Assembly (NCBI GenBank): GCA_937967805.1
Contig: CALBTC010000350.1
Coordinates: 1 to 7,552 of the forward strand
Direction: 5' to 3'
DNA: 7,552 nucleotides
DNA from: an uncultured Anaerolineaceae bacterium
GTDB taxonomy: Bacteria > Chloroflexota > Anaerolineae > Promineifilales > Promineifilaceae
Shown here: in pieces, positions 174-6,277 of the stretch
How the letters are laid out: each line of letters opens with the position of its first letter
How positions within the stretch are numbered: position 1 is the stretch's first letter
Made by a program: the position numbers and the translations under genes
The notes under the pieces: generated by a model
Told to the model about the DNA's origin: nothing
The model's input: only the letters and a program-made list of their open reading frames with translations
Database searches by the model: none

Positions 174-219
174 AGGACCCGATTTTAGGCCCCAAAATAA
201 ATGCCTTTTGAGGTGAGAC

Positions 220-453
220 ATGCGACAGGCAAAATTTAGTTTAGCAGAACCAAATATCCGATTTTTGAATAAGCATAAACAATATGGCTATAAAGATAAA
301 AGTGCGCTTGTGCGAGATGCCCTGGATCGATTAAGAGAAGAGATAGAGCGCCAGCAGCTAGAAGCCTCAGCTGATCTGTACAGCGAACTGTATGAGATCG
401 ATGAAGAAACGCAAATGTTAACTGATTCAGCCATAAGTGATTGGCCAGAATGA
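220..453 (+). CDS. Ribbon-helix-helix antitoxin of a MazEF/PemIK-type module
   Basis: This 77-residue protein has the layout of a MetJ/Arc/CopG-class antitoxin. A short N-terminal strand (QAKFSL, residues 3-8) precedes two helices (roughly 9-20 and 27-47) that include KSALVRDALDRLREEI; this part would dimerise and bind DNA. Residues from about 48 to 77 are acidic and end in DSAISDWPE, typical of the tail that wraps around and blocks a MazF toxin. The start is fixed by a good ribosome-binding site, GAGGTGAG at 210-217, close to the ATG. Its stop overlaps the toxin start in ATGA, so the two are translationally coupled. The gene is conspicuously richer in A and T than the genes to its right, which fits recent acquisition. 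The DNA-binding role is inferred from family resemblance; no specific subfamily is claimed. Confidence 0.85.
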   Translation: MRQAKFSLAEPNIRFLNKHKQYGYKDKSALVRDALDRLREEIERQQLEASADLYSELYEIDEETQMLTDSAISDWPE

Positions 454-806
454 GCAAGTTACGCCGAGGGATGGTCATTGATATTAACCTGGACCCTACT
501 TTGGGATCCGAAACAGGGAAAATCCGCCCCTGTATTATCGTGACCAATGACACCTATAATGCGCGGGTTCCTGTGGTTCAAGTTGTGCCAATCACGGGAT
601 GGAATGAAAAAAAAGAGCGAATTGTCACCAATGTCACCCTTTTTCCTTCAGAGAAGAATGGACTATCTAAAAAGTCTGTGGCCGATTGCCTACAAACGCG
701 TCCAGTCGATCATCGTTTTCGGCTTGTAAAGATTCGCGGCGCATTGTCTTCAAAGCAGTTGGAACAGATTGATCAGGCGCTTAAGGCAGTCTTTTCACTT
801 CCTTGA
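450..806 (+). CDS. mazF: MazF/PemK-family endoribonuclease toxin
   Basis: The 118-residue product matches the MazF/PemK fold, whose members cut RNA at short specific sequences and halt growth when the antitoxin is lost. Visible family hallmarks are RRGMVIDINLDPTLGSETGK (residues 5-24), the RP pair at 26-27, VPIT at 46-49, and the C-terminal block with KSVADCLQTRPVDHRFR. R26 and T49 line up with the catalytic Arg and Thr known in this family (R25 and T48 of Bacillus subtilis MazF), so the toxin looks active. Length is normal (about 110-120). I chose the ATG at 450, which overlaps the antitoxin stop as ATGA; an in-frame TTG at 441 is also possible but has no better ribosome-binding site. The cleavage sequence cannot be read from the gene. 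The gene is followed by a strong terminator and converges with the glutamine synthetase gene. Confidence 0.92.
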   Translation: MSKLRRGMVIDINLDPTLGSETGKIRPCIIVTNDTYNARVPVVQVVPITGWNEKKERIVTNVTLFPSEKNGLSKKSVADCLQTRPVDHRFRLVKIRGALSSKQLEQIDQALKAVFSLP

Positions 807-888: not shown

Positions 889-3069
<2,181 letters not shown>

Positions 3070-3100
3070 GTTGTTTCTCCTCAATTTGGATAGTTCACTC

Positions 3101-3156
3101 AACCTCCCGTATGCTTCATAAAAATAGCTTGCTGTGGCAGAAACCTGCGGGAGGTT
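3101..3156 (-). promoter_or_regulatory. Long-range hairpin in the glutamine synthetase leader
   Basis: The 9-base arms AACCTCCCG (3101-3109) and CGGGAGGTT (3148-3156) are exactly complementary and enclose about 38 nt. They lie after the leader terminator and before the glnN ribosome-binding site. In the mRNA the 5' arm reads AACCTCCCG, which is anti-Shine-Dalgarno-like and could alternatively pair with the GAGGAG before the ATG. Smaller alternatives such as GGCAG/CTGCC share bases with it. Function is inferred. Confidence 0.4.
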
Positions 3157-3170
3157 CGGCACCTGCCAAC

Positions 3171-3220
3171 AAAAAAGACGCCTGCGCGCAGAAGTCCCGA
3201 AGGATTTCTGGCGAGGCGTC
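3171..3220 (-). terminator. Leader terminator (candidate attenuator) before glnN
   Basis: Read on the minus strand, GACGCCT (3220-3214) pairs with AGGCGTC (3183-3177). Inside are CAGAA/TTCTG-type pairing (3210-3206 with 3193-3189) and a TCC-TTCG-GGA tip, a stable UUCG tetraloop. Six T residues (3176-3171) follow at once, so this is a textbook intrinsic terminator. It starts about 30 nt after the start expected from the promoter at 3257-3285, and therefore sits inside the glnN leader. It shares GGCCnnGACGCCTC with the amt leader hairpin. It could also serve as terminator of the unknown gene ending at 3344, but the promoter lies between them. Confidence 0.75.
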
Positions 3221-3256
3221 TTGGCCTTTACAAGATATTGTTGTTACAGGCTGGCT

Positions 3257-3285
3257 ATTCTAGCGAGGTGTGCGGGCTTCGTCAA
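3257..3285 (-). promoter_or_regulatory. glnN promoter
   Basis: On the minus strand TTGACG (3285-3280), a 17-nt spacer and TAGAAT (3262-3257) form a near-consensus sigma-70-type promoter. Transcription should start near 3250, giving a leader of about 180 nt before the ATG at 3069. It gives glnN its own transcript, separate from the unknown gene. Confidence 0.65.
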
Positions 3286-3301
3286 ATAGTAGTTTGTAGC
3301 A

Positions 3302-3320
3302 AAACGGCCGTCTCCCGTTT
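3302..3320 (-). terminator. Possible weak terminator after the unknown gene
   Basis: On the minus strand AAACGG and CCGTTT pair over a 7-nt loop and are followed by TTG. The 3' arm is built from one copy of the palindrome ACGGCCGT (3304-3311). It lies 24 nt after the stop of the unknown gene. The stem is short, so termination may be inefficient and some read-through into glnN is possible. Confidence 0.3.
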
Positions 3321-3343
3321 GTGCAAATTGTCCAAACGCCGCG

Positions 3344-4288
3344 TCAATCCGGGCTGCTCAACAGGCCACGCCGCTGGAAATCGCGGCGTACGCGCTGGGC
3401 CAGATCAGCGGCGCTGCTGCCCAGGAACAGGCCAAACCGATCTTCATCGGGGCGGGCCTCCACAGCCAGCCAATGCAGGCCATCACGGTATTGCGGCAGT
3501 TCAATTTCGTTGATTTGTAACGGCCGTTCCGCGTGCAAATGATCCTGAATTTCCTGCCAATGGGGCGGGAACAGCCGGTCAGGGCGCAGGTCGAATTTGA
3601 TTTGTAAACGGCCGTCCCCAATCAGCGCCTCAGCCACCAGCTCCCACAAATCCAGCACTTCCATCCCGGCCGACTTGGGCACTTCACGCCGCTGGTTAAC
3701 GGCATAAGTGTAGATCGTTTTGCCGTCGGCCGCCTGGAACACAGGGGCCCAAAAGTCGGTTTGCCCGGTGACGCGCTTTTTCAGGTAAAAAATCGGCCGG
3801 CGCAGCCCCAATGTGGCGCGGCTGACGCCGCGCACGTGCAGCTTATCGCTCAATCCCTTTTCGCCCAAAATGCCCGCCTCGTGCAAAAAATCCGTCAGAT
3901 ATTCGCGCACTTTGGCCAGCTCCACGTGCTTAAAAACCGGGCCGTTTTTGGTGACGGCCAATACCTGTTCATTGATGGTGTACACGGGGAAAACGGCGCG
4001 GGCGCGCCGGGCAATGAAAACGTAGTCAGGCAGTCGCGAAGCGTTCACCAGGCCATGCAGCAGCCGGGTGAGCGGCTCTACAATTTGCTGCGGATGTTTG
4101 GCCGTCACGCGAAAGCCACAGACGTCCACGCCAAATGATTTTTGCAGGCCGATGTGCTCCACAAAAATGGGGATTTGGTAAACTGTGCCGGCGTTCATCG
4201 TGGCCGAGACGATTTCTACGCGGGCGATGTAGGGGTGGGTACGGCCGTATGAATCAACGGCCGTGTTTCGTTCAACAGAAATCTTCAT
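3344..4288 (-). CDS. Unrecognised protein between glutamine synthetase and amt
   Basis: A 314-residue soluble protein with no signal peptide and no evident membrane segment. I do not recognise its family. It is well formed, with codon use and GC content like its neighbours. Visible stretches include YGRTHPYIARVEIVSATMNA near the N-terminus, an RRARAVFPVYTIN segment, HVELAKVREYLTDFLHEAGI, and a C-terminal part with GDGRLQIKFDLRPDRL and RPLQINEIELPQYRD. The last two carry copies of the ACGGCCGT repeat in different frames. There is no obvious catalytic motif, ATP-binding loop or helix-turn-helix. I chose the ATG at 4288; a TTG at 4345 would add 19 residues, but it falls on a likely -10 box (TACAAT). 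The gene is transcribed toward glnN and follows amt on the same strand, so a nitrogen-related role is possible but unsupported. Confidence 0.75.
   Translation of the reverse strand: MKISVERNTAVDSYGRTHPYIARVEIVSATMNAGTVYQIPIFVEHIGLQKSFGVDVCGFRVTAKHPQQIVEPLTRLLHGLVNASRLPDYVFIARRARAVFPVYTINEQVLAVTKNGPVFKHVELAKVREYLTDFLHEAGILGEKGLSDKLHVRGVSRATLGLRRPIFYLKKRVTGQTDFWAPVFQAADGKTIYTYAVNQRREVPKSAGMEVLDLWELVAEALIGDGRLQIKFDLRPDRLFPPHWQEIQDHLHAERPLQINEIELPQYRDGLHWLAVEARPDEDRFGLFLGSSAADLAQRVRRDFQRRGLLSSPD
3511..3618. repeat. Two near-identical 20-bp direct repeats carrying ACGGCCGT inside the unknown gene
   Basis: TGATTTGTAACGGCCGTTCC (3511-3530) recurs at 3599-3618 as GATTTGTAAACGGCCGTCCC with one added A. 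In the protein they encode ERPLQINE and GDGRLQIKF. LQI keeps the same reading frame in both, but the octamer is read in different frames. This suggests the unit is a DNA-level element tolerated in coding sequence. Confidence 0.6.
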
Positions 4289-4298
4289 AAGTTCGTTT

Positions 4299-4315
4299 GC
4301 CTCAGGGGCAAATGA
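4299..4315 (-). promoter_or_regulatory. Small hairpin just before the unknown gene
   Basis: TTTGCC and GGCAAA pair around a 5-nt loop about 10 nt upstream of the ATG at 4288, where a ribosome would land. No strong Shine-Dalgarno sequence is visible here; GAGG inside the hairpin is the nearest candidate. The hairpin could lower translation, but this is only inferred. Confidence 0.3.
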
Positions 4316-4335
4316 TGGTTTGTGTTCTGCTGAAA

Positions 4336-4364
4336 ATTGTATCAACCCTAAATCTCCCGGCCAA
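4336..4364 (-). promoter_or_regulatory. Possible promoter for the unknown gene
   Basis: On the minus strand TTGGCC (4364-4359), a 17-nt spacer and TACAAT (4341-4336) make a reasonable promoter. Transcription would start near 4329, about 40 nt before the ATG at 4288. If it is real, the TTG at 4345 cannot be the start codon on this transcript. Confidence 0.4.
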
Positions 4365-4396
4365 ACGTTTTATTAGGATTTACCCCAGGCAGGCCC

Positions 4397-4457
4397 AGGA
4401 CTGGCAATCCTAAACAGAATGGTTTTATGGCTGCTACTGTCCAGGACTGCCAGTCCT
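4397..4457. repeat. Pair of short palindromic repeats (AGGACTGsCArTCCT)
   Basis: AGGACTGGCAATCCT (4397-4411) and AGGACTGCCAGTCCT (4443-4457) differ at two of 15 positions. The second is a perfect 7-bp inverted repeat around one base. Both are preceded by CC and followed by TA. They resemble dispersed REP-like intergenic repeats. No function can be assigned from sequence. Confidence 0.55.
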
Positions 4458-4478
4458 ACGCTCCATAATTCCTTAGAA

Positions 4479-4515
4479 TAATAAAGAAACCGAGCCAGCT
4501 TCACGCCACCTCGGT
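4479..4515 (-). terminator. Possible terminator downstream of amt
   Basis: On the minus strand ACCGAG (4515-4510) pairs with CTCGGT (4494-4489) around a partly paired 15-nt middle, followed by TTCTTTATT. It lies about 220 nt after the amt stop and would end any transcript that passes the larger hairpin at 4666-4730. Confidence 0.5.
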
Positions 4516-4552
4516 CATCAAAAGAGTTGTTCCTTTATTCAAACCTAATCCG

Positions 4553-4618
4553 GTCATTCCCGCGAAGGCGGGAATCCACTCCTCTAAGCAAATGGATACC
4601 TGCCTACACAGGTATGAC
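4553..4618. mobile_element. MITE-like inverted-repeat element
   Basis: A 66-bp unit begins GTCAT and ends ATGAC. Its two 26-bp arms (4553-4578 and 4593-4618) are imperfect inverted copies of each other: GTCATTCCCGCGAAGGCGGG against the complement GTCATACCTGTGTAGGCAGG, both continuing to ATCCA. Each arm is also a hairpin in itself: ATTCCCGC-GAAG-GCGGGAAT at 4556-4575, and ATACCTG with CAGGTAT at 4596-4615. Arms of the GTCATTCCCGCG type are known from small non-coding repeats in many bacteria. It encodes nothing, so any mobility would depend on a transposase elsewhere. Confidence 0.6.
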
Positions 4619-4665
4619 AATTGCAGGTGTTTGGTTAATCAGGAACATCTCAAAAATAAAAAGGG

Positions 4666-4730
4666 AATAGGACACAGATTCACACAGATTTTCACAGATT
4701 TGTTCTATCTGTGTTCATCTGTGTCCTATT
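4666..4730. repeat. Large CACAGATT inverted repeat, likely amt terminator
   Basis: The arms 4666-4689 and 4707-4730 are reverse complements over 24 bases with two mismatches, around a 17-nt loop. The left half contains three spaced copies of CACAGATT and the right half two copies of ATCTGTGT. It starts seven bases after the amt stop. Read on the minus strand it is followed by CCCTTTTTATTTTTG, so the RNA would form a long hairpin with a U-rich tail. It probably both ends and protects the amt mRNA. Confidence 0.65.
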
Positions 4731-4736
4731 TCTCTT

Positions 4737-6086
4737 TTAGTCAGTGCTGGGGCTGGGGATGATGGCCGATCCAAACTCGGGGTAGTTGACCGTGCCGTGC
4801 TCAGACAGGTCCAGGCCTTCCAGCTCTTCTGTCTCGGAAACGCGCAGAATGCCTGCGGCTTTGAGTGCAAAGAAGACAGCTGACATCATGACGAAGGCCC
4901 AGATGGCGTAAACGGCCGAACCCAACAACTGTACGCCCAACCCGGCGGCATCGCTAAACAGCGCCGTGGCAACACCACCCCAGATGCCGCATAAACCGTG
5001 TACCGGCCAGGCCCCAACGGGATCGTCAATCTTGACTTTCTCCAGCAAGACCATACCGGCCACAACCAGCACACCGGCCACGGCGCCAATAATGAGCGCC
5101 GAAATGTTGGAAACCACATCGGCGTTGGCAGTGATGCCCACTAAACCGGCCAGCATACCGTTAAGCGCGTAGCTCAAGTCTGGCTTACCGTCATTCAGGA
5201 AGGTGGAGGCGATGGTGGCCAGGATACCGCCGGTGCAGGCTGCCAGGAAGGTGTTCACCGCCACGGTTACCACGGCAATCGTGTTTTCCGTACCGGCCAT
5301 GGCCAGCACAGAGCCGGGATTAAAGCCAAACCAGCCAATGAGCAGAATAAACACGCCCAGGGTAGCCGAGGTAATGTTGTGGCCCGGCATCGGGTTGGCG
5401 GTGCCGTCCTTGTTGAAACGGCCGATGCGCGGCCCCAACACAATCGCCCCGGCCAGGCCGGCAAAACCACCCACGGCATGCACAATCAGCGATCCGGCAA
5501 AGTCATGGAAGCCCAGGGAGGAGAGCCAGCCGCCGCCCCATTGCCAGAAACCGGCAATGGGGTAGATGAGACCCGTCAGTACGGCGCTGTAAATGAGATA
5601 AGCGCGAAACTGCATCCGTCCGGCGACGGCTCCGGAGACAATGGTGGCGGCCGTGGCGGCAAACGCCACCTGGAACAAAAAGTCGGTCTGGAAGTGGGGC
5701 AGGTAGCCCAGGTCGATGGCGTCCTGGCCGGGGATGCCCACACCGGCAAAGCCGATGATGCCGTTGGCCGCGCCGCTGTACATGATGCCGTAGCCTACCA
5801 GAAAGTAAAGAACGGCCCCCACACACATGTCCATAACGTTTTTAAACAAAATGTTGATCGTGTTTTTGCCGCTGTTGAAGCCGGACTCCACCAGGGCAAA
5901 GCCCGCCTGCATGAACAAAACCAGTACGGCGGCGATAAACATCGTCAGGTTGTCGATGGCGAAGGCGAGTTCATCCATCGGCGAGATTTCCTGGGCCAGG
6001 GCGTTGTCTACCACGGCAAAGCAAATGGCCAGGGCCAATGCTGACAAACCGATGCGGCTAAAGCGACTGCGAATTTTGTAATCCAT
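4737..6086 (-). CDS. amt: Ammonium transporter, Amt/Mep/Rh family
   Basis: This 449-residue membrane protein takes up ammonium through a trimeric channel-like transporter. An N-terminal signal peptide is likely (hydrophobic stretch 13-31, cleavage near NALA-QE), followed by about eleven membrane segments. Family landmarks, with E. coli AmtB equivalents inferred by eye: F142 and F255 (gating Phe, in FQVAF and GWFGFNPGS), W183 (WGGG), D195 (DFAGS), and the twin pore histidines H203 (IVHAVGGFAG) and H363 (PVHGLCGIWGG). All are intact, so the transporter should work. The C-terminal tail ELEGLDLSEHGTVNYPEF is the segment that in this family controls transport and meets PII proteins; no PII gene is in the window. 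The start is supported by GGAG eight bases upstream. The gene has its own promoter and attenuator-like leader and diverges from gltB. Confidence 0.95.
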   Translation of the reverse strand: MDYKIRSRFSRIGLSALALAICFAVVDNALAQEISPMDELAFAIDNLTMFIAAVLVLFMQAGFALVESGFNSGKNTINILFKNVMDMCVGAVLYFLVGYGIMYSGAANGIIGFAGVGIPGQDAIDLGYLPHFQTDFLFQVAFAATAATIVSGAVAGRMQFRAYLIYSAVLTGLIYPIAGFWQWGGGWLSSLGFHDFAGSLIVHAVGGFAGLAGAIVLGPRIGRFNKDGTANPMPGHNITSATLGVFILLIGWFGFNPGSVLAMAGTENTIAVVTVAVNTFLAACTGGILATIASTFLNDGKPDLSYALNGMLAGLVGITANADVVSNISALIIGAVAGVLVVAGMVLLEKVKIDDPVGAWPVHGLCGIWGGVATALFSDAAGLGVQLLGSAVYAIWAFVMMSAVFFALKAAGILRVSETEELEGLDLSEHGTVNYPEFGSAIIPSPSTD

Positions 6087-6141
6087 CTGTTCTTCTCCTT
6101 TGTTCTGCCACTAAAAAATGATGAAAATTAGGCGACCGTGT

Positions 6142-6162
6142 CGCAGACCCTTAGGGTCTGCG
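6142..6162. promoter_or_regulatory. Perfect hairpin in the amt leader
   Basis: CGCAGACCC (6142-6150) and GGGTCTGCG (6154-6162) are exact inverted repeats with a 3-nt loop. It lies between the leader terminator and the amt ribosome-binding site. A smaller hairpin GCGAC-ACG-GTCGC on the minus strand shares its last bases, so the two exclude each other. It may be part of a leader switch, or a dispersed repeat that landed here. Confidence 0.45.
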
Positions 6163-6171
6163 TCTTGAAAC

Positions 6172-6218
6172 AAAAAACGCCCCTCGGGCAAAAAGTGGAA
6201 TCACTTTCCCGAGAGGCG
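6172..6218 (-). terminator. Leader terminator (candidate attenuator) before amt
   Basis: On the minus strand CGCCTCTCGGG (6218-6208) pairs with CCCGAGGGGCG (6188-6178) over 11 bp with one G-T pair. It is topped by AAAGTG/CACTTT with an ATTC loop, and six T residues (6177-6172) follow. This is a strong intrinsic terminator. The gene to its right, gltB, is on the other strand, so no minus-strand gene upstream could own it; it must act in the amt leader. Its foot GGCCGTGACGCCTC (6226-6213) matches the glnN leader GGCCAAGACGCCTC at 12 of 14 positions. Confidence 0.8.
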
Positions 6219-6248
6219 TCACGGCCAAAATTTATTTGATTGCTTTCA

Positions 6249-6277
6249 ACTCTACTGACCAATCCCGATGAAGTCAA
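6249..6277 (-). promoter_or_regulatory. amt promoter
   Basis: On the minus strand TTGACT (6277-6272), a 17-nt spacer and TAGAGT (6254-6249) form a promoter very like that of glnN (TTGACG-17-TAGAAT). Transcription should start near 6242, leaving a leader of about 155 nt. An inverted repeat AATCCCGAT / ATCGGATT (near 6262-6284, one extra base) overlaps the -35 and could be a regulator site. Confidence 0.55.

What the first reader, a model, noticed from the sequence alone, without database searches (positions are those of the whole stretch)
3171..6277. Shared attenuator-like leader before glutamine synthetase and amt
Both glnN and amt have promoter TTGACK-17-TAGARt, then within about 20-30 nt of the -10 the sequence GGCCnnGACGCCTC (3226-3213 and 6226-6213 on the minus strand), which is the foot of a strong hairpin with a six-T tail. 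For amt no upstream gene on that strand could use the terminator, so it must cut the amt transcript short unless relieved. Two neighbouring nitrogen genes sharing this suggests a common controlling signal. The apical parts differ completely (UUCG tip versus ATTC tip), so the conserved foot and the outer stem are the likely recognised part. It does not show the known glutamine riboswitch core, and there is too little RNA before the terminator for a two-hairpin ANTAR target or a T-box.
Basis: partly seen in the sequence, partly recalled or inferred. Interest (0 to 1): 0.72.

Follow-up and report, generated by a model that had tools for sequence, protein, structure and literature searches.

The report
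Shared terminator leader before nitrogen genes
In a Chloroflexota bacterium, the genes for a glutamine synthetase and an ammonium transporter both begin with the same short RNA stop signal just after the promoter, which probably switches them on and off together, though this is untested and no further copy was found to compare.

Summary
Both minus-strand genes have a sigma70-like promoter, a leader of about 20-30 nt and a strong hairpin with six T, sharing GGCCnnGACGCCTC exactly. None of 5000 structure-preserving shuffles and none of 135 compared hairpins from octamer-rich DNA, probably of the same lineage, reaches the pair's alignment score. No promoter-like site of 8/12 or better lies between hairpin and start codon, so RNA from the visible promoters must cross the terminator. 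For glnN it could also end the upstream gene's RNA; for amt only ORFs antisense to gltB lie upstream.

Best reading: a paired transcription attenuator relieved by a nitrogen signal. GGC-CnnGAC-GCC can form a small hexaloop hairpin that takes the terminator's 5' foot, placed like an ANTAR P2 hairpin, but with C instead of A at loop position 1 and no P1 found. Regulation is inferred. No Chloroflexota chromosome was available and no other copy was found. amt, an uncharacterised gene and glnN recur on the same Chloroflexota contigs (from contig lengths); that gene's protein is an unproven candidate partner.

The parts
3257..3285 (-). glnN sigma70-like promoter TTGACG-17-TAGAAT
3223..3226 (-). GGCC of the shared 14-mer (glnN leader)
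3214..3227 (-). possible antiterminator mini-hairpin AGGC-CAAGAC-GCCT (glnN); its 3' half is the terminator foot
   Evidence: role inferred
3175..3222 (-). glnN leader intrinsic terminator hairpin
3171..3176 (-). T6 tract of the glnN leader terminator
889..3069 (-). glnN, type III glutamine synthetase
   Evidence: PF12437, PF18318, PF00120
6249..6277 (-). amt sigma70-like promoter TTGACT-17-TAGAGT
6223..6226 (-). GGCC of the shared 14-mer (amt leader)
6215..6226 (-). possible antiterminator mini-hairpin GGC-CGTGAC-GCC (amt)
   Evidence: role inferred
6176..6220 (-). amt leader intrinsic terminator hairpin
6172..6177 (-). T6 tract of the amt leader terminator
4737..6086 (-). amt, ammonium transporter
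   Evidence: TIGR00836, PF00909
3344..4288 (-). uncharacterised 314-aa gene between amt and glnN (listed as a 333-aa ORF from an upstream TTG), own promoter-like site at 4364-4336; candidate partner

Best explanation
The two sites are homologous (or convergently constrained) transcription attenuators. RNA polymerase starts some 15-25 nt before GGCCnnGACGCCTC and by default stops at the T6 tract, giving a leader RNA of roughly 70-80 nt. Under a nitrogen signal a trans-acting factor, most likely an RNA-binding protein, holds the short hairpin GGC-CnnGAC-GCC. That hairpin uses the terminator's 5' foot, so the terminator cannot form and glnN and amt are read through together. Shown: promoter-like sites, hairpins, T tracts, shared sequence, no other promoter-like site downstream. 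Inferred: start sites, termination in vivo, regulation, the antiterminator hairpin, the factor.
For: Shared 62-column leader, 38 identical columns, beyond structure-preserving chance (0 of 5000) and beyond the 135 compared hairpins. Strong folding. Promoter-like sites just upstream of both hairpins: 87 and 223 of 3000 simple shuffles of the same 95 nt give one; none of 8/12 or better between hairpin and start codon. GACGCC foot rare in octamer-rich DNA, 1 of 158. Both genes serve ammonium assimilation, and amt, the middle gene and glnN recur on contigs of equal length. Stepwise folds pair GGC with GCC before the terminator forms in 6 of 6 glnN steps and 3 of 6 amt steps. In 3 of 8 glnN leaders examined in other phyla, chosen from the 14 with a terminator-like hairpin, an A1-G4 hexaloop hairpin overlaps the terminator foot in the same way.
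Against: Only two copies, in one genome; no Chloroflexota chromosome could be compared. The short fold with the mini-hairpin is weak (about -3 to -5 kcal/mol; 3 of 6 amt steps fold otherwise), and a comparable hexaloop overlaps the foot in 11 of 157 other hairpins. The glnN terminator may serve the upstream gene. gltB, in the same pathway, has neither the motif nor unusual upstream structure (z 0.13 and -0.78). No other copy in 266 held records, window included, 80 genomes of other phyla or IMG/VR. Promoter-like sites also lie within 60 nt upstream of 12 of 157 other hairpins, and such sites are not rare in this window (9 found, 4.6 expected).
Confidence: 0.55

Rival explanations
1. Ordinary insulating terminators: the glnN hairpin ends the RNA of the upstream 314-aa gene, the amt hairpin blocks antisense transcription from the gltB side, and the true glnN and amt promoters lie downstream.
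For: The 314-aa gene ends at 3344, 121 nt before the glnN hairpin. Terminator-like hairpins are common in octamer-rich DNA: 158 strong ones in 526 kb.
Against: No promoter-like site of 8/12 or better between either hairpin and its start codon. Same-strand promoter-like sites directly upstream of both hairpins. Only ORFs antisense to gltB lie upstream of amt on its strand. Does not explain the shared sequence.
Confidence: 0.22
2. Two small-RNA genes: each promoter plus hairpin makes a 70-80 nt sRNA whose shared GGCCnnGACGCCTC acts in trans, and the downstream genes use other promoters or read-through.
For: Promoter to T tract is of sRNA size; the conserved stretch begins in the unpaired leader.
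Against: Most of the conserved stretch is buried in the terminator stem; both copies sit sense-oriented before nitrogen genes, with no other promoter-like site for those genes.
Confidence: 0.1
3. A dispersed hairpin repeat with a T tail that landed twice by chance before these genes, or a chromosomal terminator consensus of this species.
For: Two copies in 7.5 kb; octamer-rich DNA reuses another palindrome (ACGGCCGT) in hairpin feet, 25 of 158.
Against: Only 1 of 158 strong hairpins in 526 kb of octamer-rich DNA has a GACGCC foot, and no further copy in 2.6 Mb held; but these are not chromosomes of the species.
Confidence: 0.1

Closest known systems
ANTAR-targeted leaders (EutV, NasR, AmiR; PMC3369931, PMC8934654)
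   Same: Leader terminator before nitrogen genes; a small hairpin with a six-base loop and G at position 4, whose 3' half is the terminator's 5' foot.
   Different: Loop position 1 is C, not A; no upstream P1 hairpin found; stem only 3-4 bp; ANTAR presence in this organism unknown.
glnA / Downstream-peptide motifs (PMC2864571, passages seen)
   Same: glnA RNAs are associated with the same gene classes (glutamine synthetase, ammonium transporters, glutamate synthase, PII).
   Different: No Rfam match to them; only 20-30 nt of RNA between the inferred start and the terminator.
Protein-relieved terminators of the BglG/LicT/SacY kind (PMC3369936, passages seen)
   Same: A protein-stabilised hairpin that excludes the terminator is the proposed logic.
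   Different: Sugar-gene targets; no sequence comparison with that RNA target was made here.

Membership tests
Intrinsic (Rho-independent) terminator | GC-rich hairpin directly followed by a T tract | tested here: met
   T6 at both sites. Termination itself not tested.
ANTAR target leader | Two small hairpins (at least 3 bp, six-base loops, A1 and G4) with a short linker | tested here: inconclusive
   No such pair in either leader. But of five comparison leaders L048, L052, L072 and L079 showed no pair under the same rules and L071 one away from its terminator, so the test has no working positive control. With any base at position 1, amt shows a pair only about 490 nt upstream.
ANTAR target leader | A at loop position 1 | tested here: not met
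   Loops CAAGAC and CGTGAC.
ANTAR target leader | G at loop position 4, in a hairpin overlapping the terminator 5' arm | tested here: met
   G4 is the first base of GACGCC.
ANTAR target leader | An ANTAR protein in the genome | not testable with these tools
   No whole genome held.
glnA / Downstream-peptide riboswitch | Match to the Rfam covariance model | tested here: not met
   No match to these families (E up to 10 in the last two).
T-box leader | Match to the Rfam T-box model | tested here: not met
   No match to this family.
Transcription attenuator | Premature termination in the leader that changes with a signal | not testable with these tools
   Needs RNA data.

The most novel reading that the evidence does not exclude
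A new antitermination system for nitrogen assimilation in Chloroflexota: the uncharacterised protein encoded between amt and glnN (confidently predicted fold with no clear match among solved structures, many invariant Arg/Lys) is a nitrogen-responsive RNA-binding antiterminator that grips the GGC-CnnGAC-GCC hairpin in both leaders.
Probability: 0.08. Interest if true: 0.75.

Novelty: new variant of a known kind. Interest (0 to 1): 0.45.

Why it matters
If true, it would be a paired RNA switch controlling ammonium uptake and glutamine synthesis in a phylum for which the listings of my literature searches showed no study of nitrogen-gene attenuation. The antiterminator would be far smaller than a riboswitch, and there is a named neighbouring gene to test as its partner.

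Tried and rejected
Whole-genome checks: no genome is held for the window. I looked for a Chloroflexota genome behind those 80 loci by Amt (40 genomes, 31 with a match, best 54% identity) and GltB (50 genomes, 10 of them also, 31 with a match, best 58%) and recognised none; genomes with neither gene found stay unclassified by this test.

Viral scans for the leader gave nothing: 34 contigs with the bare foot hairpin, none preceded by GGCCnn and none octamer-rich; 0 with the full motif; 6 with the 5' half only, none with a following T tract; 0 of 6 octamer-bearing records with a GACGCC/GGCGT hairpin. Amt and the middle protein had no relatives in IMG/VR; GlnN one fragment. Leader DNA had no match in plasmids or, for amt only, phages.

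A covariance model from two sequences was not built: the MAFFT alignment is out of register with the amt 3' arm, and I could not supply a hand-made one. An nhmmer profile was used instead. A DNA operator at GGCCnnGACGCCTC was considered; it does not explain two paired stems with differing upper parts or the T tracts, but is not excluded. A leader peptide was not pursued: there is no ATG between the inferred start and either hairpin, though TTG codons (and a GTG in amt) occur (reading).
Full report
What the window is. It encodes a MazF-type protein (+), glnN (type III glutamine synthetase, -), an uncharacterised 314-aa gene (-), amt (-) and the start of gltB (+). Amt is 95% identical to a protein named from an Anaerolineaceae bacterium, GlnN 93% to one from Candidatus Leptofilum, and the middle protein 80-86% to named Promineifilaceae and Anaerolineaceae proteins. 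I infer a Chloroflexota bacterium. No whole genome is held for it.

The observation. GGCCNNGACGCCTC is exact at 3226-3213 and 6226-6213 on the minus strand. TTGACG-17-TAGAAT and TTGACT-17-TAGAGT lie just upstream. On the minus strand four sites reach 9/12, and three of them stand before amt, the middle gene and glnN; simple shuffling of the 95 nt before each hairpin gives such a site in 87 (glnN) and 223 (amt) of 3000 cases; no site of 8/12 or better lies between hairpin and start codon. The window as a whole has 9 such sites on both strands against 4.6 expected. The leaders fold at z -4.7 and -4.2 and the hairpins end in T6.

More than chance. The pair scores 53. The best of 135 hairpins compared (157 collected, short ones left out) scores 45 against glnN and 42 against amt, and 0 of 5000 shuffles that keep the amt pairing reach 53 (mean 24.8, sd 4.7, maximum 48). 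In 52 loci (526 kb, some overlapping; hairpins counted once by sequence) chosen by at least 1.2 ACGGCCGT per kb, 158 strong terminator-like hairpins were found and 1 has GACGCC in its foot; exact runs of 8 or more at the foot occur in 41 of 8910 pairs of the 134 hairpins without the octamer core. That DNA is probably mobile DNA of the same lineage; the octamer is a proxy, not a taxonomy.

No further copy. A relaxed motif search and an nhmmer profile found only the two window sites in 266 records, 2.6 Mb, window included; 0 of 80 genomes carrying glnN; 0 in IMG/VR. These sets hold no identified Chloroflexota chromosome, so absence there says little about relatives.

How it may work. Stepwise folding from the inferred start shows GGC pairing with GCC around the six-base loop CAAGAC or CGTGAC before the terminator forms, in 6 of 6 glnN steps and 3 of 6 amt steps; the 3' half of this hairpin is the terminator foot. 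This gives the conserved GGCC a reason and suggests an antiterminator that needs a stabilising factor. Against it: the hairpin is weak, and 11 of 157 other hairpins have a comparable hexaloop at the foot. I hold the terminators as very likely, conditional relief as likely, and this particular antiterminator as possible.

Comparison with the known. Ramesh et al. 2012 (PMC3369931; passages seen) define the ANTAR target as two small hairpins with hexaloops, A at position 1 and G at position 4, and found linkers of 5-12 nt among the E. faecalis eut genes. The 2022 EutV-RNA structure paper (PMC8934654; passages and the Discussion seen) reports that G4 stacks on the protein, that A1 makes no specific contact, and redefines the minimal target as a single hexaloop, while noting that both hairpins are needed for antitermination in vivo. 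The window leaders have hexaloop, G4 and overlap with the terminator, but C1 and no detected partner hairpin. For comparison, terminator-like hairpins lie within up to 400 nt upstream of glnN in 14 of 80 loci of other phyla; of 8 of these examined, 3 (L048, L052, L072) carry an A1-G4 hexaloop hairpin overlapping the terminator. No P1 was found in those three by my rules, so the P1 test is inconclusive. Rfam gave no match at the gathering cut-off, none for the glnN leader at E up to 10 and three weak matches (two snoRNA families and drum RNA), far below their cut-offs, around amt and gltB.

The neighbour. The middle protein has no Pfam match. Its longest-contig lengths coincide with those of Amt hits 22 times and of GlnN hits 22 times (120 listed for each protein), Amt and GlnN share 7, and six lengths are shared by all three; twelve shifted-length controls give 0-2. 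The cluster is therefore probably conserved in Chloroflexota, inferred from lengths and not from sequence. AlphaFold gives pLDDT 92.5 (alignment of 71 of the 120 listed homologues); searches of solved structures give no convincing match. Invariant columns include R85, K126, R128, R153, K170, K171, R172, R227, R235, R238, R279, R284, R306 and R307, beside acidic ones such as E123, D133, D148, E277 and E282. That is compatible with nucleic-acid binding but proves nothing.

Literature. Searches for Chloroflexi/Chloroflexota with glutamine synthetase, attenuation, ANTAR, riboswitch or nitrogen regulation and for attenuation of glutamine synthetase with ammonium transporter genes listed nothing that, by title and abstract start, describes this element; of those listed I opened only PMC2864571 (passages). 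Most subscription papers are outside that library.

Verdict. A real, shared, non-random leader with an intrinsic terminator before amt and glnN; most likely a small attenuator pair of a known general kind with a new sequence; regulation unproven.

Noticed in passing
window, 11 sites (e.g. 103, 1373, 3304, 7164): Palindromic octamer ACGGCCGT occurs 11 times against 0.13 expected; IMG/VR contigs with 2-4 per kb exist, where 25 of 158 strong terminator-like hairpins have octamer-like feet. It looks like a lineage signature reused in terminators, as uptake sequences are elsewhere (recalled).
   Followed up: partly
window 3344-4288 (-): Conserved uncharacterised 314-aa protein found on contigs of the same lengths as amt and glnN, confident AlphaFold model without a clear solved relative.
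   Followed up: partly
L048, L052, L072 upstream of glnN: Three glnN leaders (records titled Clostridia, Clostridium and Merdimonas) share a GRACAARGGY hexaloop hairpin overlapping the terminator.
   Followed up: partly
L148, L233, L256, L210: Strong hairpins seem to lie between a promoter-like site and the ribosome binding site of a gene on the strand opposite to the T tail, i.e. 5'-UTR hairpins and not leader terminators (my reading).
   Followed up: partly
window 4380-4740: Intergenic stretch downstream of amt with several short imperfect palindromes and CACAGATT-type repeats (by eye).
   Followed up: no
window 3069-3165 and 6132-6172 (-): A second hairpin follows each terminator: AACCTCCCG...CGGGAGGTT before glnN (z -1.2) and CGCAGACCCTAAGGGTCTGCG before amt (z -2.5).
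   Followed up: no
window 219-806 (+): Small ORF followed by a MazF/PemK-type protein, a likely toxin-antitoxin pair.
   Followed up: no
L072:12581-12787 (-): Cobalamin riboswitch by Rfam.
   Followed up: no
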